Assembly (NCBI GenBank): GCA_020852055.1
Contig: JADZBP010000090.1
Coordinates: 1 to 49,994 of the forward strand
Direction of reading: 5' to 3'
DNA length: 49,994 bases
DNA from: Candidatus Latescibacterota bacterium
GTDB taxonomy: Bacteria > Latescibacterota > UBA2968 > UBA8231
Shown here: positions 5,000-38,972 of the stretch, one piece after another
How the letters are laid out: every line of letters starts with the position of its first letter
How positions within the stretch are numbered: the stretch's first letter is position 1
Translations under genes and position numbers: made by a program
The notes under the pieces: generated by a model
What the model was told of the DNA's origin: nothing
What the model saw: only the letters and a program-made list of their open reading frames with translations
Databases searched by the model: none

Positions 5000-5395
5000 A
5001 TGGCCGAACTGAAGCTCGAGCATTTTGCCATCAACGTCGCCGAACCGGTGGCGATGGCCGACTGGTACTGCAAGAATCTGGGTATGAGTGTCTTCCGCAA
5101 AGGGGACGGCCCGGTACACATGACCTTCCTGGCCGACGCCTCGGGCCGGGTGGTGCTGGAGATCTACACCAATCCCCCCGAGCTGGTGCCCGACTACCAG
5201 TCCGTCAACCCTCTGGTGCTGCACCTGGCCTTTGCCACCGCCGACCTGCGCGCCGTACACCAGCGCCTGGTGGCCGCCGGGGCCAAGCCCATCGGCGAGA
5301 TCAGCGCCAACCCGGTTGGCGACCTGCTGGCCTTTCTCCGCGACCCCTGGGGCCTGACGGTGCAGCTGGTCCAGCGGGTCAACTCCATGCCCTGA
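5000..5395 (+). CDS. VOC-family (glyoxalase/dioxygenase fold) metalloprotein
   Basis: A 131-aa single-module vicinal-oxygen-chelate protein. Putative metal ligands at the usual four positions are H8, E54, H75 and Q122, consistent with a functional metal centre (H/E/H plus Q where E is more common). AAAGGAG precedes the ATG at 5000. It starts the long rightward cluster, 13 nt before the SDR gene. The family covers lactoylglutathione lyases, extradiol dioxygenases, epimerases and resistance proteins, so the reaction is unassigned. In this context a sugar-derived or ketoacid isomerisation is as plausible as methylglyoxal detoxification. Confidence 0.88.
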   Translation: MAELKLEHFAINVAEPVAMADWYCKNLGMSVFRKGDGPVHMTFLADASGRVVLEIYTNPPELVPDYQSVNPLVLHLAFATADLRAVHQRLVAAGAKPIGEISANPVGDLLAFLRDPWGLTVQLVQRVNSMP

Positions 5396-5408: not shown

Positions 5409-6131
5409 ATGGCGAAACGCCTGCAGGACCAGGTGGCCCTGATCGTAGGAGCCAGCAGCGGCATGGGCTTGGCCACGGCCCGCACCTTTGCCGAGGAGGG
5501 CGCGCGGCTGGCGCTGGCCGCCCGCAGCGCCGACAAACTGGGGGCCCTGGCCGCCGAGCTGGGCCCGCCGGCCCTGGCCTGCCCGGTGGACGTGGAGGAC
5601 GCCGCGGCGGTCGAGGGCGTGGTCGGGAGAGTGGTGGAGCGTTTCGGCCGCCTCGATATCCTGGTGTACACCGCCGGGACAAACATCCCCCAGCGCAGCC
5701 TCGAGGTGCTCACCCCCGAAGCCTGGGAGCGCATGATCGGGGCCAACCTCACCGGCGCCTTCTACTGCACCCGCGCCGTGCTGCCGGCGATGCGCAGCCA
5801 GCAGGCCGGGCTGATCATCTACGTCTCCAGCGCCGCGGTGCAGCGCCCCGACGTTTCGGGGGTCTCGTACCAGGCCAGCAAACACGGGGTGGTGGGCCTG
5901 GCCCACGGCACCTTCCGCGAGGAACGCGACCACGGCGTGCGGACCTGCGTCATCTTTCCGGGGCTCACCGACACCCCCCTGGTGCTCAAACGGCCCACAC
6001 CGACCCCGCCCGAGGTGATGGCCAAGGCCCTGCAACCAGGGGACGTGGCCGAAGCCTGTCTCTTTGTCGCCGCCCTGCCGCCCCGCACCTACGTGCCCGA
6101 GCTGGTGCTGATGCCGGCCGGACTGGCTTAG
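5409..6131 (+). CDS. Short-chain dehydrogenase/reductase (SDR)
   Basis: A 240-aa classical SDR using NAD(P)H. The cofactor motif GASSGMG is at 14-20, the catalytic serine at S140/S141 (YVSSAA), and Y154/K158 form the YxxxK pair (YQASK). In place of NNAG the structural motif reads YTAG. A GGGGAG site precedes the ATG. It lies between the VOC gene and the MurA-like gene with 6-13 nt gaps, so it is almost certainly cotranscribed. It probably oxidises or reduces a hydroxyl of the pathway's sugar or keto-acid intermediate; the substrate is unknown. Confidence 0.92.
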   Translation: MAKRLQDQVALIVGASSGMGLATARTFAEEGARLALAARSADKLGALAAELGPPALACPVDVEDAAAVEGVVGRVVERFGRLDILVYTAGTNIPQRSLEVLTPEAWERMIGANLTGAFYCTRAVLPAMRSQQAGLIIYVSSAAVQRPDVSGVSYQASKHGVVGLAHGTFREERDHGVRTCVIFPGLTDTPLVLKRPTPTPPEVMAKALQPGDVAEACLFVAALPPRTYVPELVLMPAGLA

Positions 6132-6137
6132 GATCCG

Positions 6138-7445
6138 GTGGTGGATACCCTCACCGTCGAAGGCGGCACCCCCCTGCGGGGCGAGGTGGAGTTGAGCGGC
6201 GCCAAGAACTCCATCACCAAGCTGATGGTGGCCTCGATGCTCACCCGGGAGCCCTGCACCTTTCACCGGGTCCCCAATATCGGCGACAGCCGCGTCACCC
6301 GCGCCATCTGCGAGTCCCTGGGCACCCGCTTCACCGACCGGCCACCCCGCACCCTGGAGGCCCACACCCCCCAGATCGAGTCCAGCGAGATCCCCCTTTC
6401 CCTGGCCAGCCATAACCGCCTGGCCATCATGACCGTAGCCCCCCTGCTGCACCGCCAGGGCCGGGCGGTGGTGCCGGCCATGGCCGGGGGCGACCGCATC
6501 GGCCCGCGGCCCGTCGATTTCCACCTCGCCGGGTACCAGGCCATGGGCGCCCAGGTCGAGGTGCGCGACCAGACCTACTACTTCCAGACCGAGGGCCTGC
6601 GCGGGGCCGATATCACCCTGCCCTTTCCCAGTGTGACCACCACCGAGAATCTGCTGATGGCCGCCACCCTGGCCCGGGGGCGCACCTTCATCCGCAACGC
6701 CGCCATCGAACCCGAGGTCATGGACCTGGTGATGTTCCTGCAGAAGATGGGGGCCATCATCGACTACAACGTCGATCGCACCCTGGTGATCGAAGGGGTG
6801 AGCCGGCTGCAGGGCGCCACCCACGAACTGATGCCCGACCGCCTGGTGGCCGCCTCTATGGGCGCGGCAGCAGTGGCGTCCGGGGGGGACGTCTTTGTGC
6901 GCGGGGCCAGGCAGGCGGATCTGGTGGCCTTCCTCAACACCCTGCGCCGGGTGGGCGGGCAGTTCGAGGTGGCGGCCGACGGCATCCGCTTCTACCGGCA
7001 GGGCCCGCTGCGCGCCATCACCCTCGAGACCAACGTGCACCCTGGCTTCATGACCGACTGGCAGCCGCCCTTCGCCATCCTGCTCACCCAGGCCGAGGGC
7101 ATGTCGGTGATCCACGAGACCGTCTTCGAGGGCCGCTTCGGCTACGTGGAGGAGTTGCAGCGTATGGGCGCCGACGTGGCCCTGTACGACACCTGCCTGG
7201 GCGGGGGCCGCTGCCGTTTTGCCGCCAGCAACTACCAGCACAGCTGTGTCATCAAGGGCCCGGCCATCCTGCGCGGGGCCGATTGCGCCATCCCCGACCT
7301 GCGGGCCGGCTTCACCTACCTGATCGCCGCCATCCTGGCCAAAGGCACCTCGACCCTCACCGGGGTCGAGCACCTGGACCGGGGCTACGAAGACCTGGCC
7401 GCCTGCCTGCAGGCCTTGGGGGCGCGCCTGAAGAGGAGTGCCTGA
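6138..7445 (+). CDS. murA: MurA-like enolpyruvyltransferase with Asp replacing the catalytic Cys
   Basis: A 435-aa enolpyruvyltransferase of the EPSP-synthase/MurA fold, with full family length. In MurA it would transfer enolpyruvate from PEP to UDP-GlcNAc. Nearly all landmark residues are present: SGAKNS (Lys22/Asn23 of E. coli), the Arg91 equivalent (R94), RPVDFH (Arg120), PGFMTD (Asp305), EGRF (Arg331), LRAG (Arg371) and DRGYE (Arg397). The Cys115 position is Asp: the loop reads GGDRIGPRP with D119. The same change in mycobacterial and chlamydial MurA leaves the enzyme active and fosfomycin-insensitive. Start is GTG at 6138 or 6141. A Cys-type murA exists at 34993-36264, so this copy is either a back-up enzyme or acts on another sugar made by the surrounding cluster. 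Confidence 0.93.
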   Translation: MVDTLTVEGGTPLRGEVELSGAKNSITKLMVASMLTREPCTFHRVPNIGDSRVTRAICESLGTRFTDRPPRTLEAHTPQIESSEIPLSLASHNRLAIMTVAPLLHRQGRAVVPAMAGGDRIGPRPVDFHLAGYQAMGAQVEVRDQTYYFQTEGLRGADITLPFPSVTTTENLLMAATLARGRTFIRNAAIEPEVMDLVMFLQKMGAIIDYNVDRTLVIEGVSRLQGATHELMPDRLVAASMGAAAVASGGDVFVRGARQADLVAFLNTLRRVGGQFEVAADGIRFYRQGPLRAITLETNVHPGFMTDWQPPFAILLTQAEGMSVIHETVFEGRFGYVEELQRMGADVALYDTCLGGGRCRFAASNYQHSCVIKGPAILRGADCAIPDLRAGFTYLIAAILAKGTSTLTGVEHLDRGYEDLAACLQALGARLKRSA

Positions 7446-7446
7446 G

Positions 7447-8313
7447 ATGCGCCTTGGTGGACCCATCTTCGAGTCCTGGGCCGACCCCGAAGGGTGGGCC
7501 GCCGCCCACCGGAAACTGGGGTACGGCGCCGCCTACTGCCCCCTGCGGCCGGGCGCCCCCGGCGAACAGATCGCCGCCTTTGCCAAAGCGGCCGGGGACG
7601 CGGGTCTGGTCATCTCCGAGGTGGGCGCCTGGAGCAACCCGGTCAGCCCGGTAGCGTCGGTGCGCCAGAGATCCATCGCCCATTGCCAGGCTTCCCTTGC
7701 CCTGGCCGACGAGATCGGCGCCCGGACCTGCGTCACCATCTCGGGGGCGCGCGGCCCTCAGGACGAGGCCAGCCTGACCTCCCCCGGCTGGGACGGGCCC
7801 CACCCGGACAACTACGCCGAGGATATCTTCGATCTGATCGTCGAGACCACCCGCCAGATCATCGACGCGGTGAAACCGCGGCGCTCCTGCTTCGCCCTAG
7901 AAACCATGCCCTGGATGTACCCCGACTCCCCCGAGAGTTACCTCGAACTGTTGCACGCCATCGACCGGCCCACCGGCTTCGGGGTACACCTCGACCCGGT
8001 CAACATGGTCAACAGCCCGCAGGTTTACTTTGCCAACACCGGGCTGCTCCGCACCTGCTTCGAGCTCCTAGGTCCCCACATCAAGAGTTGCCACGCCAAA
8101 GACATACGCCTGGCCGGCAAGCTGACTGTCCATCTGGACGAGGTCTGTCCGGGCGAGGGGGCCCTCGATTACCCGACCTACCTCGAAGAGGCGTCGCGGC
8201 TGCACCCGGACCTGCCCATCATGCTCGAACACCTCCCCACCGCCGCCGACTACGACCGGGCGGCAGCGCACCTGCGCCAGGTGGCGCGGGACCTCACCCT
8301 GGAGTGGCAATGA
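7447..8313 (+). CDS. TIM-barrel sugar-phosphate isomerase/epimerase family protein
   Basis: A 288-aa xylose-isomerase-like TIM barrel (AP endonuclease 2 family). The four predicted divalent-metal ligands are E152 (FALETMPW), D183 (VHLDPVN), H216 (SCHAKD) and E261 (MLEHL), matching the E/D/H/E set of hexulose and sugar-phosphate epimerases. The ATG at 7447 follows an AGGAG site at 7433-7437 and begins just after the MurA-like stop. The GTG at 7438 in the same frame is less likely because it lies inside the ribosome site region. Its TGA overlaps the next ATG by 4 nt. Expected to isomerise or epimerise a free or phosphorylated ketose; the exact substrate is not visible. Confidence 0.9.
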   Translation: MRLGGPIFESWADPEGWAAAHRKLGYGAAYCPLRPGAPGEQIAAFAKAAGDAGLVISEVGAWSNPVSPVASVRQRSIAHCQASLALADEIGARTCVTISGARGPQDEASLTSPGWDGPHPDNYAEDIFDLIVETTRQIIDAVKPRRSCFALETMPWMYPDSPESYLELLHAIDRPTGFGVHLDPVNMVNSPQVYFANTGLLRTCFELLGPHIKSCHAKDIRLAGKLTVHLDEVCPGEGALDYPTYLEEASRLHPDLPIMLEHLPTAADYDRAAAHLRQVARDLTLEWQ

Positions 8314-9275
8314 AACAGATCGTCTACACCGCCGCCGAGCGGGCCGAACTGCTCGACCGCGAACCCGACCAGCGCCCCCTGGCCGCCGACGAGGTCGCCG
8401 GCCCCACCCTCTTTTCCCTGATCAGTCCGGGCACCGAGCTGGCCAACTACACCGGCCTGGGCGGGCAGTTCCCCTTCCACCCCGGGTACGCCTCGGTGTT
8501 CCGCGTGGAGCAGACCGGCGCCGGGATCACCGACCTGCCGGTGGGCAGCCTGGTGTTCTGTATGGGGCCCCACGCCGCCTGGCAGCGGGCGCAGCGGCGC
8601 CACACCCTGCCCCTGCCCGCGGGCCTGGCCCCGGAGATCGCGCCTTTTGCCCGGTTGATGAGTGTGTCGATGAGCACCCTGACCACCACCCTGGCCCGGC
8701 CGCCAGCCCCGGTGTTGGTCACCGGCCTGGGACCAGTGGGCCACCTGGCCGCCCAACTCTTCGCCGCCTGCGGCTACCGGGTCACCGGCTGCGATCCAGT
8801 GGAGAGCCGGCGCCGGTTGCTGGCCGCCAAAGGCATCGAGGCCCTGGCCGAGCTGCCGGTGGACCAACCCGGATACCAGGACCTGGTCGAGCTGGTGGTG
8901 GAGTGCAGCGGCCATGAGGAAGCGGCGCTGGGGGCCTGCAAACTGGTGCGCAAACGCGGCGAGGTGGTGCTGGTGGGCGCGCCGTGGAAACAGCGCAGCG
9001 AGGCGGCGGCTCACGCCCTGCTGCACCCGGTCTTCTTCCGCTTCGTCACCCTGCGCAGCGGCTGGGAATGGGAGCTGGCCATGCACCCCACGGAGTTCCG
9101 CCCCAACAGCATCTACGGCAACATCGCCGGCGCCCTCGACTGGCTGCAGCAGGGCCGGGTGCGGGTGGATGGCATATACCAGATGGCCGCGCCGGCGCAG
9201 GCCCAGGAGGTGTTTCAGGACCTGCTCCACCGGCGGGGGGACCATCTGAGCGCGGTCTTTGCCTGGAATGCCTGA
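8310..9275 (+). CDS. Medium-chain (zinc-type alcohol) dehydrogenase-like protein
   Basis: A 321-aa medium-chain dehydrogenase/reductase. The Rossmann motif GLGPVGHLAAQ starts at residue 139, and the N-terminal catalytic half has SPGTELANYTG where Zn enzymes carry CGTD. The usual catalytic cysteine is therefore replaced by serine, as in BchC-like and other zinc-poor MDR members. There is also no structural Cys4 zinc lobe. It overlaps the upstream isomerase by 4 nt (ATGA) and the downstream lyase-like gene by 8 nt, so translation is coupled in a tight operon. It probably oxidises a sugar hydroxyl with NAD(P). Confidence 0.88.
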   Translation: MKQIVYTAAERAELLDREPDQRPLAADEVAGPTLFSLISPGTELANYTGLGGQFPFHPGYASVFRVEQTGAGITDLPVGSLVFCMGPHAAWQRAQRRHTLPLPAGLAPEIAPFARLMSVSMSTLTTTLARPPAPVLVTGLGPVGHLAAQLFAACGYRVTGCDPVESRRRLLAAKGIEALAELPVDQPGYQDLVELVVECSGHEEAALGACKLVRKRGEVVLVGAPWKQRSEAAAHALLHPVFFRFVTLRSGWEWELAMHPTEFRPNSIYGNIAGALDWLQQGRVRVDGIYQMAAPAQAQEVFQDLLHRRGDHLSAVFAWNA

Positions 9276-12200
9276 GCCCTTCTTCCCCACCGATCTGTGC
9301 GGGCCGGTGCTGCTGGTCCTTCCCGACGGCCTCGCCGAATGCGCCCGCCCCCTGCGCCAGGCCATCGCGGCGCGGGGCGGCCGGCCCGAACTACTCGAGC
9401 AGGCCGACTTCCGGCCCGGCCATTTCGCCGATTTCCAGGTGATCGCCTGCGGCCACCTGGCCAACAACGCGGCCCTGCGCCGGCTCTACACCGCCCGCCG
9501 CACTTTTGTCGACACCTTTTTCCCCGGCCCGGAGGGGTACTTCGTCAAATCCGTGCCCGATCCCTTCGGGCACCGGCGCAACTGCGTCGTGGTGGGCGCC
9601 AGCGACCAGGCCGCCTTGCCAGCGGCCATCGAGGCCCTCGCCGCCAAGGTGCTTCAGTGTCAGGGCCACCTCGACCGGGTGCATGCCCATCGCTTCTCCC
9701 ATCCACTGCCAGCCCCCCCTACCGAGGAGCAGGGCGATACCCTGGTCCGGGAGGCGCTGGCGACCTGGAACGGCGGCTGGAACGCCTCCCCCTTCCGCGA
9801 CGGGCGGCTCCGCGAATTCCTCTGGAACTTCTACCTGACCGACGATCCGGGCTGGGGCCGGCTCATCCCGCCCATCTTCGCCGGTTCGCTGCAGCCCTGG
9901 CTCGAGGAACGGCGGGCCCATCCCGAAACCTATCACTGTTTCTTCTGGCTCCACCACTATATCCAGTTGTGGGACCTGGTGGAGGACAGCCCGCTTTTCA
10001 CCGGCGCGGACCGCGCCGCCGTGGCCGGGATCTTCACCGAGCTGCTGCGGCACCTCAACGGCCTTTTCTATATGACCGAGCGGGTCAACCCGGCCGGCGA
10101 CCTGCGCCAGAACCACTCCACCTTCATCGCCCTGAGCCTGGCCGTGGGTCAGCAGTACCTGCAGCGCCGCCACGGCAATCCCGAATTCGGCTCCGCCGCC
10201 CTGACCGCCCAGCGCATCTTCGCCGGCCAGGCCTCCTCGTACAAACCCAACGACGACGCCGGGGTGGGCTACGCCTGGCTGGTGCCGCGCGAGACCCTCG
10301 ACTACCACCTGCTGCACGACGACTACCGCTACCTCGAGGAGGGCCATATCGCCCGCCTCTGCGACCTGGTGGCCCTCAGCACCGACAACATGCGCAGCGA
10401 GGTCTCCTACGGGGATACCGGCGGGTACACCCCCTGCCCGGATCGGGGCTGGGAGGGTCGCCTCTGGCCCCTGATGGCGGCCCTGTGGCACCGGGGCGAC
10501 CCCCGCCATCTGTGGCTGCTCAACTGGCTGGCCCGGGGCCGGCGGCCCGCACTGCTCGACAGCCTGGCCGGATTGTACTCGGTGGTAGAGTTTGGCGAGG
10601 AGGGGTTCCGCCTCCCCGGCTGCACCCCGCGCGAACCCGCCGACCTGCTCGGGGTCTGCGCCCTGCCCCTGCCCGAGGCCGCCCTGCGCGCGGTGACCCG
10701 GCGAACCCCGGCGGCCCATCACCCGGTACCGGGCCGGGCCTACTTCGACAAACTCTCCCTGCGCAGCAGTTTTGAAGCCCAGGACGAGTACCTGCTCCTC
10801 GAAGGGGTTGGCACCTTCTGCCACGGCCACGAGGACACCAATACCATCCTGCGCCTGACCTGGAAGAACCGCGCCTGGCTGGCCGACGGCGACTACGTGC
10901 GCGCCGCCCCCAAGTTCCACAACGCGGTGGTGGTCTGCCGGGACGGTGCGGGGGTGCACCTCTCCCCCGGCGAGGGGCTGGTGATTCCCCCCCTGGCCGC
11001 CCTCACCAGCCGGCAGGACGGCCCCCTCTTCGGGCTGGTCCAGAGCGAGGCGGCCCAGTACAACGGGCTGGACTGGCGCCGCTGCCTGTGCTGGCGCAAG
11101 GGCCGGTATATGGCGGTCATCGACCAGTTGCGCTGCCAGCTGGGCGGCACGTACGAGCTGCGCTGCCATTGGCGCCTGGTAGGGGAGGTCCGGCCCGGCG
11201 GGCAGACCCTGCGCCTGCGGCAGCAGGGCGAGGACTTCCACCTGCATCAGGCCAGCCCCGGCGCCTGGGAACTGGCGCCCGATGCCCACGAGGGCGGCCT
11301 GTGGAAGGCCTATCCTTTTGCCGATCCAGTGATCCAGGTCCTGCACCAGACCCAGGAACGGGCCCTGGCGCCCGGCGAGGACCTGGGCTTCCTCAACCTC
11401 TTCACACCCCACCCCGAGGTCCGCGTCGAACGCCTCGGCGAGTTGCTGCTGCGGGTGAAGGACGGCCAGACCACCACCCTCCTGGGCGCCGGCCCCCTGC
11501 GCCTGGGCGAGGTGCAGATCACCGGCCCGGTCTTTGCCCTCTCCCTCGACGGGGAGGTCCTCACCATCCAGGGGGCCGACCAGGTCGAGGTGCGCAGCGG
11601 GGATCGCGTGTACGCCGAATCCTTCCAGGGCGCGTACCGCACCCTCGACGCGCGCTCGCCAGTGGGACGTCAGCTGCGGCGGTTGCTGCTGGAAGAGGAA
11701 CCGATCCCCGGCCCCCGGCCCACTGCCGCGGCCCTGCCGCAGGACAGGGGCTTCCGGACCCGCTGGCAGCACCCTGTGGCAGTGACGACCGCGGCGGTCC
11801 ACGGCGAGGAGCTGGCCCTGAGCACCACCGAAGGCCTGGTGCAGAGCCGCTCCCTCGTCACCGGACAGGTGCAGTGGCAGGCCGACCTCGGGGCCCCCGC
11901 AACCTGTCTGCTGCTGGCCGACCTCGATGGCGATCGGGCCCCGGAACTGCTGGCCGGCACCGCCGACTCGCAACTGGTGCTGCTGCGCCAGGGCCAGGCG
12001 CAGTGGCGGCAGCCCCTGCGCAATATCTGGGGCCGGCCGGCCCGGGTGAACGCCCTGGCCCTGGCCGATCTGGAGGCGACGGGACAAGCCAGCGTGCTGG
12101 CCGGCACCGCCGGCTGGTACGTCAATGCCTTTGCCGCCGACGGCACCCCTCGCTGGGCCAACTGGTTCCGCTACCATCCCATCACCGCCCTGGCCGCCGC

Positions 12201-12798
12201 CGACGTGGACGGGGACGGGCGCGCCGAGGTCATGGCCGGCAATGTCTACTCCACCCCCTTGACGGTGCACAACCACGACGGCACCTTCCGCTGGTCCACC
12301 CTCGAACAGGTCGGTTCCGAGGGCAATGCCACCACCCCCAGGCGGGGCATCGGCCTCACCCACCTGTGCCTGTGGGACGCCGACGGGGACGGGGTGCGCG
12401 AGATCGCCTACGGCACTGCCGACGGCTGGCTCTACCTGGTCAAGCCCCAGGACGGGGCCGAGGTGTGGCGCTATAACCTGGTGGGGGAGGTGCGCGGGCT
12501 GGCGCTCACCGCCTCCGGTCTGGTGGCCGCGTCCGAGTTCGGCGGCCTGTACTGCTTTGGGGAGGAGGGCCAGGTGCGCTGGCGGCATCACCTGTCGCGC
12601 TGGATCCACCGGCTGGTGCTCAGCGGCGAGGTGCTGGTCGCTGAGACCAAAGCCGGCCTGCTGCGCTGCGGCACGGACGGAGGGATTACCGGTTTCCTGC
12701 CCCTCGAACAACCCAGCGCCGGTCTGTGGCCCTGCCCCGGCGGGGTGTTGCTGGCCCGGGCCGTCGGGCCCTTGTCCGCCCTCGACCTCCCTCTCTGA
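9268..12798 (+). CDS. Heparinase II/III-like protein with C-terminal FG-GAP/beta-propeller repeats
   Basis: A 1176-aa protein. Residues about 1-130 form a small alpha/beta domain recalling N-terminal domains of glycosidases. About 150-480 look like an alpha/alpha toroid. About 500-620 contain the heparinase II/III core signature HGHED (H519, H521, D523) followed by WLADGDY and HNAVVV (H551). Residues about 880-1140 hold at least three FG-GAP-like repeats (LADLDGDRAPE, AADVDGDGRAE, WDADGDGVRE), i.e. a calcium-binding beta-propeller. Such lyases cleave uronate-containing polysaccharides by beta-elimination. No signal peptide or lipobox is visible at the ATG at 9268 or in the few upstream codons, which is odd for an enzyme of this kind. 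It overlaps the dehydrogenase gene by 8 nt. Confidence 0.82.
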   Translation: MPEPFFPTDLCGPVLLVLPDGLAECARPLRQAIAARGGRPELLEQADFRPGHFADFQVIACGHLANNAALRRLYTARRTFVDTFFPGPEGYFVKSVPDPFGHRRNCVVVGASDQAALPAAIEALAAKVLQCQGHLDRVHAHRFSHPLPAPPTEEQGDTLVREALATWNGGWNASPFRDGRLREFLWNFYLTDDPGWGRLIPPIFAGSLQPWLEERRAHPETYHCFFWLHHYIQLWDLVEDSPLFTGADRAAVAGIFTELLRHLNGLFYMTERVNPAGDLRQNHSTFIALSLAVGQQYLQRRHGNPEFGSAALTAQRIFAGQASSYKPNDDAGVGYAWLVPRETLDYHLLHDDYRYLEEGHIARLCDLVALSTDNMRSEVSYGDTGGYTPCPDRGWEGRLWPLMAALWHRGDPRHLWLLNWLARGRRPALLDSLAGLYSVVEFGEEGFRLPGCTPREPADLLGVCALPLPEAALRAVTRRTPAAHHPVPGRAYFDKLSLRSSFEAQDEYLLLEGVGTFCHGHEDTNTILRLTWKNRAWLADGDYVRAAPKFHNAVVVCRDGAGVHLSPGEGLVIPPLAALTSRQDGPLFGLVQSEAAQYNGLDWRRCLCWRKGRYMAVIDQLRCQLGGTYELRCHWRLVGEVRPGGQTLRLRQQGEDFHLHQASPGAWELAPDAHEGGLWKAYPFADPVIQVLHQTQERALAPGEDLGFLNLFTPHPEVRVERLGELLLRVKDGQTTTLLGAGPLRLGEVQITGPVFALSLDGEVLTIQGADQVEVRSGDRVYAESFQGAYRTLDARSPVGRQLRRLLLEEEPIPGPRPTAAALPQDRGFRTRWQHPVAVTTAAVHGEELALSTTEGLVQSRSLVTGQVQWQADLGAPATCLLLADLDGDRAPELLAGTADSQLVLLRQGQAQWRQPLRNIWGRPARVNALALADLEATGQASVLAGTAGWYVNAFAADGTPRWANWFRYHPITALAAADVDGDGRAEVMAGNVYSTPLTVHNHDGTFRWSTLEQVGSEGNATTPRRGIGLTHLCLWDADGDGVREIAYGTADGWLYLVKPQDGAEVWRYNLVGEVRGLALTASGLVAASEFGGLYCFGEEGQVRWRHHLSRWIHRLVLSGEVLVAETKAGLLRCGTDGGITGFLPLEQPSAGLWPCPGGVLLARAVGPLSALDLPL

Positions 12799-12810: not shown

Positions 12811-13644
12811 ATGCCCCAGGCAAAACCCTTTCCCGCCCTCACCCCGGCGCAGCGTCTGTACCTCGAGGTACACGGCTACGTGGTGATCGCGCGGGTGCTC
12901 AGTACCGATCAGGTGGCCCGCCTCTGCGACCGGCTCTACGCCATCGAGGCGCAGTACCGCCAGACCGGCGCCCTGCCCGGCCCCCACTGCCATCTCTCCG
13001 CCACTGCCGAGGACTTCTTCCGGGTGGACAACCTGCCCCATCTCGATCCCTGCTTCCTCGAGTACCTCACCCATCCGCGCCTGCTGGGCATGGTCGAGGA
13101 GATCACCGGGGGCAGCGTGCGCCTGGAGCAGTCCGACGCCCACATCCGCCGGCCTACCAGCCTGGAGAAGCAGCGCTACGGTTTCCACCGCGGCATGGAT
13201 GTGGCCACCGGGTACAGCAAAAACGGCCTCTTCCACGGCCCCTTCGTCAAGACCCTGACCAACCTCACCGACCTGGGTCCCGACGACGGGGGCACGGTGG
13301 TCATCGACGGCAGCCACAAGCTCGATATCGAGCCGCAGGTCCTCATCGACGCGGCCCTGGCCGACCCCCGCCTGATCCACCACGTCGAGGCCCCGGCCGG
13401 CTCGACCCTGCTCTTCTTCGAGAGCCTGATCCACTCCTCGGGCATCATCCGTTCCGGGCGCGACCGGCTGCTGATCATCGGCGGGTACACCCCGACCATG
13501 TACCAGACCTGGCGCGGCTACGAGCCCGACCCCGAATTCGCCCAGACCCAGGATGAGGCTACCCGTTCCCTCTTGACCGGGGACCAGAAATACCACTGGG
13601 AGCGCAAACTGCGCCGCCTCGCCGACCCGGTGCCGGAACCCTGA
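12811..13644 (+). CDS. Phytanoyl-CoA dioxygenase (PhyH) family protein
   Basis: A 277-aa Fe(II)/2-oxoglutarate oxygenase-like protein. The double-stranded beta-helix core is seen around GPDDGGTVVIDGSHK (156-170) and the distal histidine strand LLFFESLIHSSG (H208). The proximal metal motif is not the usual HxD: the strand reads GFHRGMD (H126, D130), an HxxxD spacing. This could be a subfamily variant or a changed metal site. A GAGGAG site precedes the ATG at 12811, 12 nt after the lyase-like gene. Oxygenases of this family hydroxylate acyl-CoAs, amino acids or natural products; the substrate here is unknown. Confidence 0.85.
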   Translation: MPQAKPFPALTPAQRLYLEVHGYVVIARVLSTDQVARLCDRLYAIEAQYRQTGALPGPHCHLSATAEDFFRVDNLPHLDPCFLEYLTHPRLLGMVEEITGGSVRLEQSDAHIRRPTSLEKQRYGFHRGMDVATGYSKNGLFHGPFVKTLTNLTDLGPDDGGTVVIDGSHKLDIEPQVLIDAALADPRLIHHVEAPAGSTLLFFESLIHSSGIIRSGRDRLLIIGGYTPTMYQTWRGYEPDPEFAQTQDEATRSLLTGDQKYHWERKLRRLADPVPEP

Positions 13645-13658
13645 CCACCGACCCGACG

Positions 13659-14675
13659 ATGAAATTGTACCTGCGCAACTACCCGCCCCCGGCCGGCATC
13701 CGGGTGCCGCCCGCCCCGATGCGCGCCCTGGTCGCCGACCTCTTTGTTCGGGCCGGCCACGAGCCCGAGGGCAGCTCCCTGCTCGCCGAGCTCCTGGTGC
13801 AGAACGACCTGCGCTGCGTCTTCAGCCACGGCACCCGCAAACTGCCCGACTACCTGCCCCTGCTGCGCCAGGGCGGCATCAATGCCCGGCCGCAGGTGCG
13901 GGTGGTGGAGGAATCCCCCACCACCGCGGTGCTGGATGGCGACGGGGGCCTGGGATACTTCCCCTGCCACCAGGGCGCCCGCCTCGCGGCGGCCAAGGCC
14001 GCCGAACACGGGGTGGGCGCGGTGACCACCCGCAACCACTTCCACTTCGGGGCCGCCGGTATCTATTCCCGCCTGGCCCTCGACCGCGACTGCATCGGCC
14101 TGGCCATCTCGGCCAACCGCTTCGACCTCTCCCCCGAGGCACTGGTGCTCAATGCTGTCTCGGTCTCGCCGCTGAGCCTCGCGGTGCCCGCCGGGAACGA
14201 GGCGCCTCTGGTGCTGGACATGGGCGCCGGACTGCTGCCCTACAGCCCCGAACTCTTCTCCCGGTTCCCGGCCACCTTCTTCAAGAGCCTGGGGTTGGGC
14301 GCGGTGTTCATGGCCCTGGGCGGGGTGCTGGCCGGCATCTGGAGACCCGAATGCCAGCACCATCCCGCTGGCTGGCTCTCCGATCAGGGCGCCTTCATCG
14401 CCGCCTTTGCCGTGGACCGTTTCATGGAGGTGGGGGAATTCAAGCGGGAGATGGACCGCTATATCGGTCAGGCCCGCGCCATGCGCCCCCTGCCGGGCAC
14501 CGAAACCGCCGAGTTGCCCGGCGGCCTCGAGTGGACCTGGGAGCGCCAGAACAGCACCCTGGGCATCCCCTACAGCGACGAACACTGCCGGCTGATCGAG
14601 CAGGTGGCGGAGGAGTTCGGCGCCGAGACCCCTTTCCCCCACTGGCAACACACCCGTTTCGGACCGACCCCATGA
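13659..14675 (+). CDS. Ldh2-family malate/lactate/ureidoglycolate-type dehydrogenase
   Basis: A 338-aa NAD(P)-dependent 2-hydroxyacid dehydrogenase of the type 2 malate/L-lactate (YlbC/DpkA) family. Family marks are FSHGTRKLPDYL (S56, H57, R60) and RNHFHFGAAGIYS (H129 in the conserved HFG.AG.Y). It also has VLDMGAG and the C-terminal GIPYSDEH. The ATG at 13659 lies 14 nt after the PhyH gene, and the stop overlaps the aldo-keto reductase start by 4 nt (ATGA). Members oxidise malate, sulfolactate, 2,3-diketogulonate or delta-piperideine carboxylate; a sugar-acid substrate fits this cluster best. Confidence 0.9.
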   Translation: MKLYLRNYPPPAGIRVPPAPMRALVADLFVRAGHEPEGSSLLAELLVQNDLRCVFSHGTRKLPDYLPLLRQGGINARPQVRVVEESPTTAVLDGDGGLGYFPCHQGARLAAAKAAEHGVGAVTTRNHFHFGAAGIYSRLALDRDCIGLAISANRFDLSPEALVLNAVSVSPLSLAVPAGNEAPLVLDMGAGLLPYSPELFSRFPATFFKSLGLGAVFMALGGVLAGIWRPECQHHPAGWLSDQGAFIAAFAVDRFMEVGEFKREMDRYIGQARAMRPLPGTETAELPGGLEWTWERQNSTLGIPYSDEHCRLIEQVAEEFGAETPFPHWQHTRFGPTP

Positions 14676-15586
14676 ACCTGCGTCCCCTCCCCCACACCGA
14701 CCTGCTGGTCTCCCCCCTCTGCCTGGGCACCATGACCTTTGGCGCCCCGGTGGGCCGCGCTCAGGCCGTCGCGCTGGTGCACCGCGCCCTGGACCTGGGG
14801 GTAAACTTCATCGATACCGCCAACATCTACGAAGGATACCGCCGGGTACCCGGCTCCGCCGGCGGGGTGGCCGAGGAGATCCTGGGCGAGGCCCTGGCGG
14901 GCCGCCGGGCCGGGGTGGTCCTGGCCACCAAGGCCGGCAATGCCGTGGGCCCCGGCCCCGAGGACCGCGGCCTGGGGGCAGCCCACCTGCGCCGCGAGTG
15001 CCGCCGCAGCCTGGAACGGCTGCGCACCGACTACCTGGATCTCTTCTACCTGCACCGGCCCGATGGCGATACCCCCCTCGAAGAGTCGGTGGCGGCCGTG
15101 GCCGACCTGATCGCCGCAGGCCACGTGCGCCACTGGGGCCTCTCGAACTTCTCCGCCATCCAGACCTCGCAGGTACTGGAGGTCTGCCGCGAGGGCGGCT
15201 GGCCCCTGCCGGTGGTCCACCAGCCCGCCTACAGCCTGCTCAACCGCCAGGCCGACGCCGACCTGCTGCCCCTCTGCCGCCGGGAAGCCCTGGCCGTGGC
15301 GCCGTACCGGGTGCTCGAAGGCGGTCTGCTGACCGGCAAGTACCAGAGCGGGGTGCCGGGCGGCTCGCGCGGCGCCGACAAACCAGATTGGATTCCGCAC
15401 CTGCAGGAGGCCGCAACCCTCGCCCGCCTGAGGGCGCTGGAGGCCGAAGCCCAGACCACCGGCCTGGCGCTTTTCGACTATACCCTGCAAACCACCGCCG
15501 CGATCCCCGGCATCACCAGCCTGGTCCTGGGCATGACCAGCATCCCCCAACTCGAAGCCGCCGCACACGCACTCGAAAGGAGCTGA
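14672..15586 (+). CDS. Aldo/keto reductase
   Basis: A 304-aa NADPH-dependent aldo/keto reductase with a complete catalytic tetrad: D48, Y53, K87 and H128 (FIDTANIYEG, LATKAG, YLHRPD). The TIM barrel is of normal length, and GLSNFS marks the cofactor-binding strand. The start at 14672 is fixed by the 4-nt overlap with the Ldh2 gene; the frame is open upstream but there it is antiparallel to no homology. Only 2 nt separate its stop from the next SDR start codon. Likely reduces or oxidises a sugar carbonyl of the pathway. Confidence 0.93.
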   Translation: MNLRPLPHTDLLVSPLCLGTMTFGAPVGRAQAVALVHRALDLGVNFIDTANIYEGYRRVPGSAGGVAEEILGEALAGRRAGVVLATKAGNAVGPGPEDRGLGAAHLRRECRRSLERLRTDYLDLFYLHRPDGDTPLEESVAAVADLIAAGHVRHWGLSNFSAIQTSQVLEVCREGGWPLPVVHQPAYSLLNRQADADLLPLCRREALAVAPYRVLEGGLLTGKYQSGVPGGSRGADKPDWIPHLQEAATLARLRALEAEAQTTGLALFDYTLQTTAAIPGITSLVLGMTSIPQLEAAAHALERS

Positions 15587-34992: not shown

Positions 34993-36264
34993 TCAGACCC
35001 GTTCGAGGCGCGCTCCCAGACCGACGAGGCGCTCCTCGAGGAAGGCGTGGCCGCGGTCGAGCTGGTAGAGGTTGGTGATGGTGCTGGTCCCTTCGGCTGC
35101 CAGCGCCGCCAGCACCGCCGCCCCGCCGGCGCGGATGTCGAGGGCCTTGACCTTGCAGCCCTTCAGTTTGGCCGGGCCCTGCACGATCACCAACCGGTCC
35201 TTTTCGGGTGAGAGTTTGGCCCCGAAACTGCGCAGGACCTTGATATGCCCGAAGCGGTCCTCGAAGATGGTTTCGCGGATATAGCTGTCGCCCTGCGCAA
35301 CACAGGCCAGGGCGGTGATACAGGGCTGCAGATCGGTGGGGAAACCCGGATGGAAATTGGTGACCACGTTGATCGGGGAGAGCGGGCCGGGCCGGCTGAC
35401 CCGGAGCCATGGGCCATCCTCCGCCATCTCGACCCCCATCTGCTGCAGTTTGGCCTCGAAGATGCGCAGGTGGTCGCGTTGCACCCCCTCGATGGCGACC
35501 TCGCCGCCGGTGATCGCCCCGGCCATCATCAGCAGGCCGGCGTCGAGCCGGTCGTACATCACCGTGTGTTCGGCGCCGTGTAATTTCTCGACCCCGGTGA
35601 TACGCACCGTGCGGGTGCCGACGCCCTCGACCCTGGCCCCCATCTTGGCCATCAGCAGGGCAAAGTCCTCGATCTCCGGGTCCGAGGCGGCGTTCTCGAT
35701 GAGCGACTCCCCCCGCGCCAGGCTGGCGGCCATCACCAGATTCTCGACGCCCGTGTGACTGGGCACGTCGCAGTACATAAACGCCCCGCGCAGATCCGGG
35801 GCGCTGACGTCGAACCCGCCCCCGCGCAGGCCCTCGACCGCGGCGCCGAGGCGGGCGAAACCGCGGTAGTGAAAATCGACGGGCCGCGGGCCGATGGTGC
35901 AGCCGCCCACTTCCTCGATCTGCGCCTGCCGGAAACGCCCCAGGAGCGGGCCGACGAAGAGGATGGAGGCGCGCAGCCTGCCGGTCAGGTCGGCGGGCAG
36001 CCGGGGGTTGTTGATGGTGGTGGCGTCGATCACCGCCGTGCCCACGCGGGGTTCGTACTCGACCTTGGCGCCCAGCCGGCGCAGGACCTCGAGGGCCACC
36101 AGCACGTCTTTGACGGGCGGCACGCGGTGCAGGATGGTCTGGCCCTCGGCAGCCAGGACCGAGGCGGCGATCATGGGCAGAGCCGCGTTTTTGGCGCCCT
36201 GCACGCGGGCCTGGCCCTGCAGGCACACGCCGCCCTGGATATGCAGCAAAGCTTCGGTGCTCAT
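34993..36264 (-). CDS. murA: UDP-N-acetylglucosamine 1-carboxyvinyltransferase MurA (canonical Cys)
   Basis: A 423-aa enzyme that catalyses the first committed step of peptidoglycan synthesis. The catalytic cysteine is present: C122 in GGCTIGPRPVDFH. QGAKNAALP provides Lys/Asn, PGFPTDLQ the Asp base, EDRF, IRAGGA and LDRGHAF the phosphate- and sugar-contacting residues. Fosfomycin sensitivity is expected at this cysteine. The ATG at 36264 is chosen because the family N-terminus starts there; the frame is open further upstream. A strong promoter precedes it and a terminator follows, so it is monocistronic. Its Asp-type paralogue is at 6138-7445. Confidence 0.96.
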   Translation of the reverse strand: MSTEALLHIQGGVCLQGQARVQGAKNAALPMIAASVLAAEGQTILHRVPPVKDVLVALEVLRRLGAKVEYEPRVGTAVIDATTINNPRLPADLTGRLRASILFVGPLLGRFRQAQIEEVGGCTIGPRPVDFHYRGFARLGAAVEGLRGGGFDVSAPDLRGAFMYCDVPSHTGVENLVMAASLARGESLIENAASDPEIEDFALLMAKMGARVEGVGTRTVRITGVEKLHGAEHTVMYDRLDAGLLMMAGAITGGEVAIEGVQRDHLRIFEAKLQQMGVEMAEDGPWLRVSRPGPLSPINVVTNFHPGFPTDLQPCITALACVAQGDSYIRETIFEDRFGHIKVLRSFGAKLSPEKDRLVIVQGPAKLKGCKVKALDIRAGGAAVLAALAAEGTSTITNLYQLDRGHAFLEERLVGLGARLERV

Positions 36265-37317: not shown

Positions 37318-37334
37318 TCATCCCGGTTTTCGGT

Positions 37335-37410
<76 letters not shown>

Positions 37411-37425
37411 GTTCTTCACTAACAT

Positions 37426-37468
37426 AGACAGCCACCTACCTTTCGCAAGGTAAGTGGCTGTCTTTTTT
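37426..37468 (+). terminator. Rho-independent terminator of tRNA-Phe
   Basis: The outer stem AGACAGCCAC (37426-37435) pairs with GTGGCTGTCT (37454-37463). The inner stem TACCTT pairs with AAGGTA around a TCGC loop. A run of T follows to 37468. Textbook intrinsic terminator. Confidence 0.93.
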
Positions 37469-37559
37469 GTTGCCCCGTCCCGGGGTCCATTTGCGGGAGA
37501 TGCCATGGTACCCGAAGGGCCGGGGGGCACGGTTCCCCGGCAGCACCTCCGGGGGTGGC

Positions 37560-38972
37560 TCAGCTCCCGGCAGTCGGAGTCGGGCCGGCGCCTGCCGGAG
37601 CGCTGGCCGCCTCCAGCGCCAGTTCCCGCGTGCGGGTTCTGGCCACCCAGAAGTACATCGGAACCCCGATGGCGCAGATGACCGCCCCGACGACGAAACC
37701 CACCCCGTAATTCCCTCCGAACACCCGCTTGATGAGGACGCCGGAGATCTGCACCGCGATGGTGTTCACCAGCACATTGACGGCCCCGTTGCAGGTGCCG
37801 AAGGTGGCCAGATCCTCGCGCCGGACCCAGGACGCGGTGAACACGTGCTGGCCCCAGTAGGTCAGGGTGGTGGTCATGACAATCAGCACATTGGCCACGG
37901 CCAAGGCGATGGCCGGCGAGGGCGTAAAGGTCACACCCAGCACCGCGGACGAGAACGAGGCCACCGCCGAGAAGATGGACACTGTCAGCGCAGAGGTGGG
38001 GTCGAAGGCGATGATGGTGGCAAAGAGCCCCATCGTGAACCCAGCGAGGATCGCCTTGGTGGAGCCGATCTTGTCGATGGCCCAACCCACGAAGAAGACC
38101 AGGCAGGTGTTGATGATCGTGCCGTACTGCAAGATCTGGGTGCCGATATCGCCCGTGCTCATACCCATGTTCACCTGGGCCTGCAGGGGGATGTACATCG
38201 CCGACACACCGAACCCGCACACCAGGGCGTTGGCCACGAAAAGCTGCACGATCCGCTTGTCCGAGAAGCCCACGCGGATGATATGGCCGATCACCTTGAC
38301 CGGGTTGAAATCGGGCGGGGTCTCGGTGCGCAGCGGGGGTTCCTTGGAGAAGATGACCGTTGCCAGCGAGGCCACTGCCAGCACGATGGCCGCCATCAGG
38401 TACACCTCGGCGTCGCCCTTCACATCCATCAACGGCATGAGCCAGATCTGCCCCAGCCAGATCGCGATACCGCCCATAACCAGGTTCAGGCCATTAACGC
38501 GCCCCCAGTAAGGTTTTCGCGCAATGTCGTACGCGATAAACGGATAGGTGTCGTACTTGACGTTCATCGCGAAATGGAAGACGGCGAACACCAGGACGCA
38601 GGACAGGGTGGAAGCGGTATAGGGGAAGAGGATCATGCCGAAGACCGTGAAGGGTATGGACGCGGCCAGGAAGGGCAGGCGCCGGCCCGCCTTGCCCTGC
38701 CAGCGGTCGCTGAGCTGCGCCAGGAACAGGGCCAGGGGCAGGGTAAGGTACCCGCGGATGGCCATCACCCCGGAAATCTCCTCGGCGTCCAGGCCGATCT
38801 TGGCCATGTGCAGCGGCATCACAGTGTTGGCCAGGTTCACCCCCAGCGTCGCCGCTGCCCCGCCAAAGACCAGCCAGAATACGTTCCGGTAAAAGAGGCG
38901 TTTGTCGTCATAAAACGCCTTGAGTTTGGGGTTCTCTCGCTCCGCGGCCTCGAAGTCTATGCTGGCTGCCAT
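37560..38972 (-). CDS. MFS transporter (GPH/SLC45-like pattern)
   Basis: A 470-aa membrane protein with about 12 hydrophobic segments. The loop 2-3 signature reads AQLSDRWQGKAGRRLPFLA, similar to the GRR..P motif of glycoside-pentoside-hexuronide and SLC45 sugar carriers. A charged, soluble N-terminal segment of about 30 residues (ERENPKLKAFYDDKR) precedes TM1 and an Ala/Pro-rich tail ends the protein. The ATG at 38972 opens the gene. A sugar or sugar-acid cargo is likely from the signature, but not proven. An 80-nt leader with an AATATA (minus TATATT at 39060-39065) candidate -10 precedes it. Confidence 0.85.
   Translation of the reverse strand: MAASIDFEAAERENPKLKAFYDDKRLFYRNVFWLVFGGAAATLGVNLANTVMPLHMAKIGLDAEEISGVMAIRGYLTLPLALFLAQLSDRWQGKAGRRLPFLAASIPFTVFGMILFPYTASTLSCVLVFAVFHFAMNVKYDTYPFIAYDIARKPYWGRVNGLNLVMGGIAIWLGQIWLMPLMDVKGDAEVYLMAAIVLAVASLATVIFSKEPPLRTETPPDFNPVKVIGHIIRVGFSDKRIVQLFVANALVCGFGVSAMYIPLQAQVNMGMSTGDIGTQILQYGTIINTCLVFFVGWAIDKIGSTKAILAGFTMGLFATIIAFDPTSALTVSIFSAVASFSSAVLGVTFTPSPAIALAVANVLIVMTTTLTYWGQHVFTASWVRREDLATFGTCNGAVNVLVNTIAVQISGVLIKRVFGGNYGVGFVVGAVICAIGVPMYFWVARTRTRELALEAASAPAGAGPTPTAGS

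What the first reader, a model, noticed from the sequence alone, without database searches (positions are those of the whole stretch)
6138..7445. MurA paralogue with Asp at the catalytic-Cys position, embedded in a catabolic cluster
Seen: D119 replaces the Cys115 equivalent (GGDRIG), while every other landmark residue (SGAKNS, Arg91/120/331/371/397, Asp305 equivalents) is kept. A second, Cys-bearing murA sits at 34993-36264 with its own promoter and terminator. Known: Asp at this place in mycobacterial and chlamydial MurA keeps activity and gives fosfomycin insensitivity. Inference: either an insensitive back-up, or an enolpyruvyl transfer to a different UDP-sugar as part of the cluster's chemistry. 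The gene is flanked by SDR, isomerase and MDR genes with tiny gaps, which suggests a pathway role.
Basis: partly seen in the sequence, partly recalled or inferred. Interest (0 to 1): 0.65.

Follow-up and report, generated by a model that had tools for sequence, protein, structure and literature searches.

The report
Spare, probably fosfomycin-proof MurA copy
The gene is an ordinary second copy of the enzyme that starts bacterial cell-wall synthesis, with a well-known change in its active site that should make it insensitive to the antibiotic fosfomycin, and it appears to sit among sugar-metabolism genes by genomic accident rather than as part of a new pathway.

Summary
In detail: window 6138-7445 (+) encodes a complete MurA with Asp119 at the Cys115 position and every other catalytic and UDP-GlcNAc landmark kept. 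A second, Cys-type MurA lies at 34993-36264, on the minus strand. The first gene is not odd. It falls in an all-Asp subclade of a broad MurA clade (Anaerolineae, Ktedonobacteria, Patescibacteria, Ignavibacteria, Chlamydiota), where Cys and Asp have switched repeatedly. Its 66%-identical relative is the only MurA of a complete Anaerolineales chromosome that also has murB and Mur ligases, so this type works as a genuine peptidoglycan MurA. Linkage to the SDR, isomerase and MDR genes is seen only inside the genus, where unrelated mnmA-side genes are equally collinear. Outside the genus, orthologues sit beside oligopeptide ABC-transporter genes or a VanW/peptidoglycan-binding protein. The isomerase-MDR pair exists without MurA in two genomes of the same family. 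Best reading: an accessory, probably horizontally acquired, fosfomycin-insensitive MurA under purifying selection (dN/dS 0.13-0.18), co-located with a catabolic cluster. The new-pathway idea is not supported. Activity and drug insensitivity are inferred from published Asp-type MurAs and were not measured here.

The parts
6138..7445 (+). Asp-type MurA (UDP-GlcNAc 1-carboxyvinyltransferase), accessory copy; D119 at the Cys115 position; start may be the second GTG at 6141
34993..36264 (-). Cys-type MurA (GGCTIG), the family-wide vertical copy
5000..5395 (+). VOC/glyoxalase-superfamily protein; no NCBIfam fosfomycin-resistance (Fos) family among its hits
5409..6131 (+). short-chain dehydrogenase (adh_short)
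7447..8313 (+). xylose-isomerase-like TIM-barrel protein (start inferred from homologues)
8310..9275 (+). zinc-type MDR dehydrogenase
9259..12798 (+). large protein with C-terminal FG-GAP/PQQ-like beta-propeller; the N-terminal ~800 aa has no Pfam hit
12811..13644 (+). PhyH-family dioxygenase
13659..14675 (+). Ldh_2-family dehydrogenase

Best explanation
6138-7445 encodes a genuine MurA: it transfers enolpyruvate from PEP to the 3'-OH of UDP-GlcNAc. Asp119 takes the place of Cys115, so fosfomycin has no thiol to alkylate. It is an accessory copy beside the family-wide Cys-type MurA (34993-36264). It belongs to a mobile or sporadically kept Asp-type lineage nearest to Chloroflexota MurAs, and lies inside a catabolic gene run only in this genus. 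Shown: sequence, family, residues, tree, purifying selection, sole-MurA relatives, lack of wider linkage. Inferred: activity, substrate, fosfomycin insensitivity, horizontal origin, and that co-location is incidental.
For: TIGR01072 464 bits against a cut-off of 392.7, higher than the Cys copy's 438.9. Catalytic and UDP-GlcNAc contacts kept. AF2 model pLDDT 94.6; best PDB matches are all MurA, TM 0.93 to C. difficile MurA C116S and C116D, with E. cloacae C115D also listed. Tree: supported all-Asp subclade (100/99) inside a MurA clade. The complete Anaerolineales chromosome G060 (CP075367.1) has one MurA, the P1-type at 66%, plus murB and Mur ligases; G061 and G062 also have one MurA over the cut-off. 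dN/dS 0.13-0.18, near the Cys copy's 0.10-0.13. Orthologues outside the genus have other neighbours; the isomerase-MDR pair occurs without MurA in G008 and G012, with PhyH next in G008. Published: Cys115Asp E. coli MurA is fully active and fosfomycin-insensitive, and M. tuberculosis, C. trachomatis and B. burgdorferi MurA carry Asp (PMC4790336); E. faecium Cys119Asp makes the drug inactive in assays (PMC5652432).
Against: No activity measured. The Gly164 position (E. coli numbering) is Thr and Lys160 is Phe, but the Anaerolineae sole MurAs of the same subclade carry the same kind of changes (Thr/Ser and Tyr/Phe). The position between SDR and isomerase genes is kept in all four congeners, which would also fit a genus-specific pathway role.
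Confidence: 0.88

Rival explanations
1. The enzyme was recruited by the cluster in this genus and transfers enolpyruvate to a different UDP-sugar made or handled by the SDR, isomerase and MDR enzymes.
For: Same position between SDR and isomerase genes in the window and four congeners; tiny gaps suggest co-transcription.
Against: Synteny in congeners extends to the unrelated mnmA and EamA side, so it is not specific. No linkage outside the genus. The isomerase-MDR pair runs without MurA in G008 and G012. UDP-GlcNAc pocket kept. Related type is the sole MurA of a genome with the peptidoglycan precursor genes.
Confidence: 0.04
2. It is a self-protection MurA in a producer of fosfomycin or a related phosphonate.
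For: Asp MurA is insensitive by precedent; a VOC-fold gene lies two genes upstream.
Against: No PEP mutase above the TIGR02320 cut-off in the genome or its relatives; the VOC protein has no Fos family among its NCBIfam hits. The MAG is about 92% complete, so absence is not final.
Confidence: 0.04
3. It is the main MurA and the Cys-type copy (long stem branch, His and Asp substitutions at the Val163 and Glu188 positions) is the specialised one.
For: The Asp copy scores higher against TIGR01072; the Cys type has a stem branch of 1.2-1.5.
Against: The Cys type is the only MurA found in most genomes of the family, while the Asp copy is in 9 of 47 genomes of the class.
Confidence: 0.04

Closest known systems
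Asp-type MurA (C. trachomatis, M. tuberculosis, B. burgdorferi; PMC4790336)
   Same: Asp replaces Cys115, other catalytic residues kept; the Chlamydiota MurAs fall in the same broad clade
   Different: Here it is a second copy in a genome with a Cys-type MurA; activity not measured
P1-type MurA of Anaerolineae (L036 = CP075367.1, L037)
   Same: 66% identical, same Asp, same subclade, same Cys-Cys-Arg-His insert
   Different: There it is the only MurA and lies next to a VanW/PG_binding_4 protein
MurA/MurZ duplications of low-GC Gram-positive bacteria (own knowledge)
   Same: Two MurA copies in one genome
   Different: Not the same duplication: the NF009470 equivalog model scores 326 bits, below its 552 cut-off
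NikO (enolpyruvyltransferase of nikkomycin synthesis)
   Same: Same fold; a MurA relative with another acceptor (acceptor from own knowledge)
   Different: Far weaker match: 92 bits against 261 for MurA, 24% identity in the fold comparison

Membership tests
MurA (TIGR01072 equivalog) | Score above the curated equivalog cut-off over the full length | tested here: met
   464 bits, cut-off 392.7, residues 3-433
MurA (TIGR01072 equivalog) | Catalytic Lys22, Asn23, Arg91, Arg120, Asp305, Arg331, Arg371, Arg397 and UDP-GlcNAc contacts | tested here: met
   All kept (K23, N24, R94, R124, D307, R333, R389, R415); only side positions vary, e.g. G164T, K160F
MurA (TIGR01072 equivalog) | Cys or Asp at position 115 | tested here: met
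   Asp119; Asp in 12 of 12 subclade rows
MurA (TIGR01072 equivalog) | Enolpyruvyl transfer from PEP to UDP-GlcNAc | not testable with these tools
   Needs enzyme assay; indirect support from sole-MurA relatives
Fosfomycin-insensitive MurA | Lack of inactivation by fosfomycin | not testable with these tools
   Predicted from Asp119 and published Asp MurAs
MurZ-type equivalog (NF009470) | Score above its cut-off | tested here: not met
   326 bits, cut-off 552
EPSP synthase (TIGR01356) | Score above its cut-off | tested here: not met
   63 bits, cut-off 287
Pathway-specific enolpyruvyl transferase of a conserved cluster | Gene linkage conserved beyond close relatives | tested here: not met
   Linkage only in the genus; other neighbours elsewhere; partial cluster without MurA in G008 and G012

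The most novel reading that the evidence does not exclude
In this genus the extra MurA has been taken into the SDR-isomerase-MDR operon and makes a 3-O-enolpyruvyl (then lactyl-like) derivative of a UDP-sugar other than GlcNAc; the linkage is too young to be seen outside the genus.
Probability: 0.04. Interest if true: 0.6.

Novelty: new member of a known kind. Interest (0 to 1): 0.18.

Why it matters
It adds an environmental lineage to the known cases of probably fosfomycin-insensitive MurA. It also shows that the Cys/Asp choice at this site has switched several times across phyla, so Asp at this position alone is not a sign of a new function. If the pathway reading were true it would be a new enolpyruvyl-sugar chemistry, but the evidence points away from that.

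Tried and rejected
Fosfomycin-resistance VOC enzyme upstream: NCBIfam gives only weak generic VOC hits. Phosphonate producer self-protection: no PEP mutase over the cut-off. MurZ, EPSPS and NikO assignment: scores far below MurA. Literature search for a named paralogous Asp-MurA in these phyla gave nothing specific. The host phylum was not identified: MnmA identity to the named Latescibacterota and Anaerolineales genomes (38-42%) is no higher than to other phyla.

Full report
Observation. The ORF 6138-7445 (+) is real, intact and correctly placed. It is a full-length MurA by the curated equivalog model: 464 bits against 392.7. Position 119, aligned with E. coli Cys115, is Asp in a GGDRIG loop. 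The other catalytic and substrate residues are kept: K23, N24, R94, R124, P125, D127, H129, S165, V166, D307, V329, F330, R333, D387, R389, R415 (against E. coli MurA fetched). The second copy at 34993-36264 is on the minus strand, carries GGCTIG, and is 39% identical to the first. A weak promoter-like site precedes it; the scan found no terminator. The four congeneric genomes carry both copies, with D119 kept at 90-92% identity, which rules out an assembly or sequencing accident.

Selection. Pairwise dN/dS of the Asp copy in the genus is 0.13-0.18, close to the Cys copy (0.10-0.13) and lower than the large neighbour gene (0.27-0.33). It is under purifying selection, so it is a working gene.

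Phylogeny. In a 122-row tree and a careful 63-row tree the Asp copy sits in a supported all-Asp subclade: Anaerolineae, own genus, G009, G010 and G015 of the same family, G036 of the same class, one Latescibacterota MAG. Its likely sister group is the Ktedonobacteria (91/81). This lies in a broad MurA clade with Chlamydiota, Patescibacteria, Ignavibacteria and Actinomycetota. At least 8 Cys/Asp changes are needed over the larger tree and 5 over the smaller. In the class, only 9 of 47 genomes hold this type, while the Cys type is found through most of the host's family, so horizontal gain or repeated loss is likely (inference). A further MurA lineage of the class (L028 type, GGDRIGRRR) also has Asp and is the best MurA hit in the sampled f3 and f4 genomes read. 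Asp at this site is therefore common even among near relatives.

Function of relatives. The complete Anaerolineales chromosome CP075367.1 (G060) has one MurA, the 66%-identical Asp-type relative, and also one murB and five Mur-ligase-domain genes. Its neighbour is a VanW/PG_binding_4 protein, and L037 likewise has one close by. G061 and the Latescibacterota genome G062 also have a single MurA over the cut-off, of this type. In G009, G010 and G015 the orthologue lies next to an oligopeptide-type ABC transporter (SBP_bac_5, BPD_transp, oligo_HPY), and in G015 it is followed by a Glycos_transf_4 gene. This fits a peptidoglycan enzyme rather than a catabolic one.

Linkage. In the genus the order Glyox-SDR-MurA-isomerase-MDR-(large propeller protein)-PhyH-Ldh_2-SDR is kept where contigs reach, but so is the divergent mnmA/EamA side, so the synteny is general. 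Outside the genus no orthologue keeps these neighbours. Isomerase and MDR homologues occur in other genomes without MurA beside them; in G008 amidohydrolase-isomerase-MDR-PhyH form a tight run, and G012 has the same isomerase-MDR pair. In G009, mnmA and the glyoxalase homologue are neighbours on one contig while MurA is on another. The cluster genes do not need MurA and MurA does not need the cluster.

Structure. An AlphaFold model from a 57-row alignment has mean pLDDT 94.6 and pTM 0.93. The 43 best PDB matches are all MurA, including C. difficile C116D and E. cloacae C115D; NikO comes after at 24% identity and EPSPS later.

Mechanism. By precedent, Asp at this site supports catalysis and cannot be alkylated by fosfomycin: E. 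coli C115D is fully active and insensitive, and M. tuberculosis, C. trachomatis and B. burgdorferi, which carry Asp enzymes, are intrinsically resistant (PMC4790336); E. faecium C119D likewise (PMC5652432); Cys/Asp variation within Chlamydiales is noted in PMC5527614. The best explanation is an accessory, intrinsically fosfomycin-insensitive MurA. Catalysis and insensitivity are inferred, not shown here.

Verdict. Observation confirmed with minor corrections; back-up reading supported; pathway reading not supported. New member of a known kind, low interest.

Noticed in passing
window 6138-7445 (residues 353-368) and 88 clade rows: The broad MurA clade carries a ~15-residue insert with C353, C359, R360 and H368 invariant in 89 of 89 rows, absent from E. 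coli MurA and the Cys-type copy; it may bind a metal. Rows were partly retrieved by peptide patterns (HPGFMTDW, NYQHSCVI among them), so some of the invariance, above all of H368 and the W308 motif, may be selected for.
   Followed up: partly
L028, L032, L034, L035, L122 and relatives: Another MurA lineage of the same class has Asp (GGDRIGRRR) and is the best MurA hit in the f3 and f4 genomes read, so these bacteria may be intrinsically fosfomycin-insensitive.
   Followed up: partly
window 34993-36264: The Cys-type MurA family has unusual residues in the substrate loop (PSHTG where most have PSVGA; Asp at the Glu188 position) and a very long stem branch.
   Followed up: no
window 14672-15586: An aldo/keto reductase gene present in the window's cluster is missing between Ldh_2 and SDR in three congeners.
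   Followed up: no
window 37335-37410: tRNA-Phe (GAA) gene; the minus-strand ORF 37318-38220 reads through it and is unlikely to be a gene.
   Followed up: partly
window 9259-12798: The first ~800 residues of the 1179-aa cluster protein have no Pfam match; only the C-terminal propeller is recognised.
   Followed up: no
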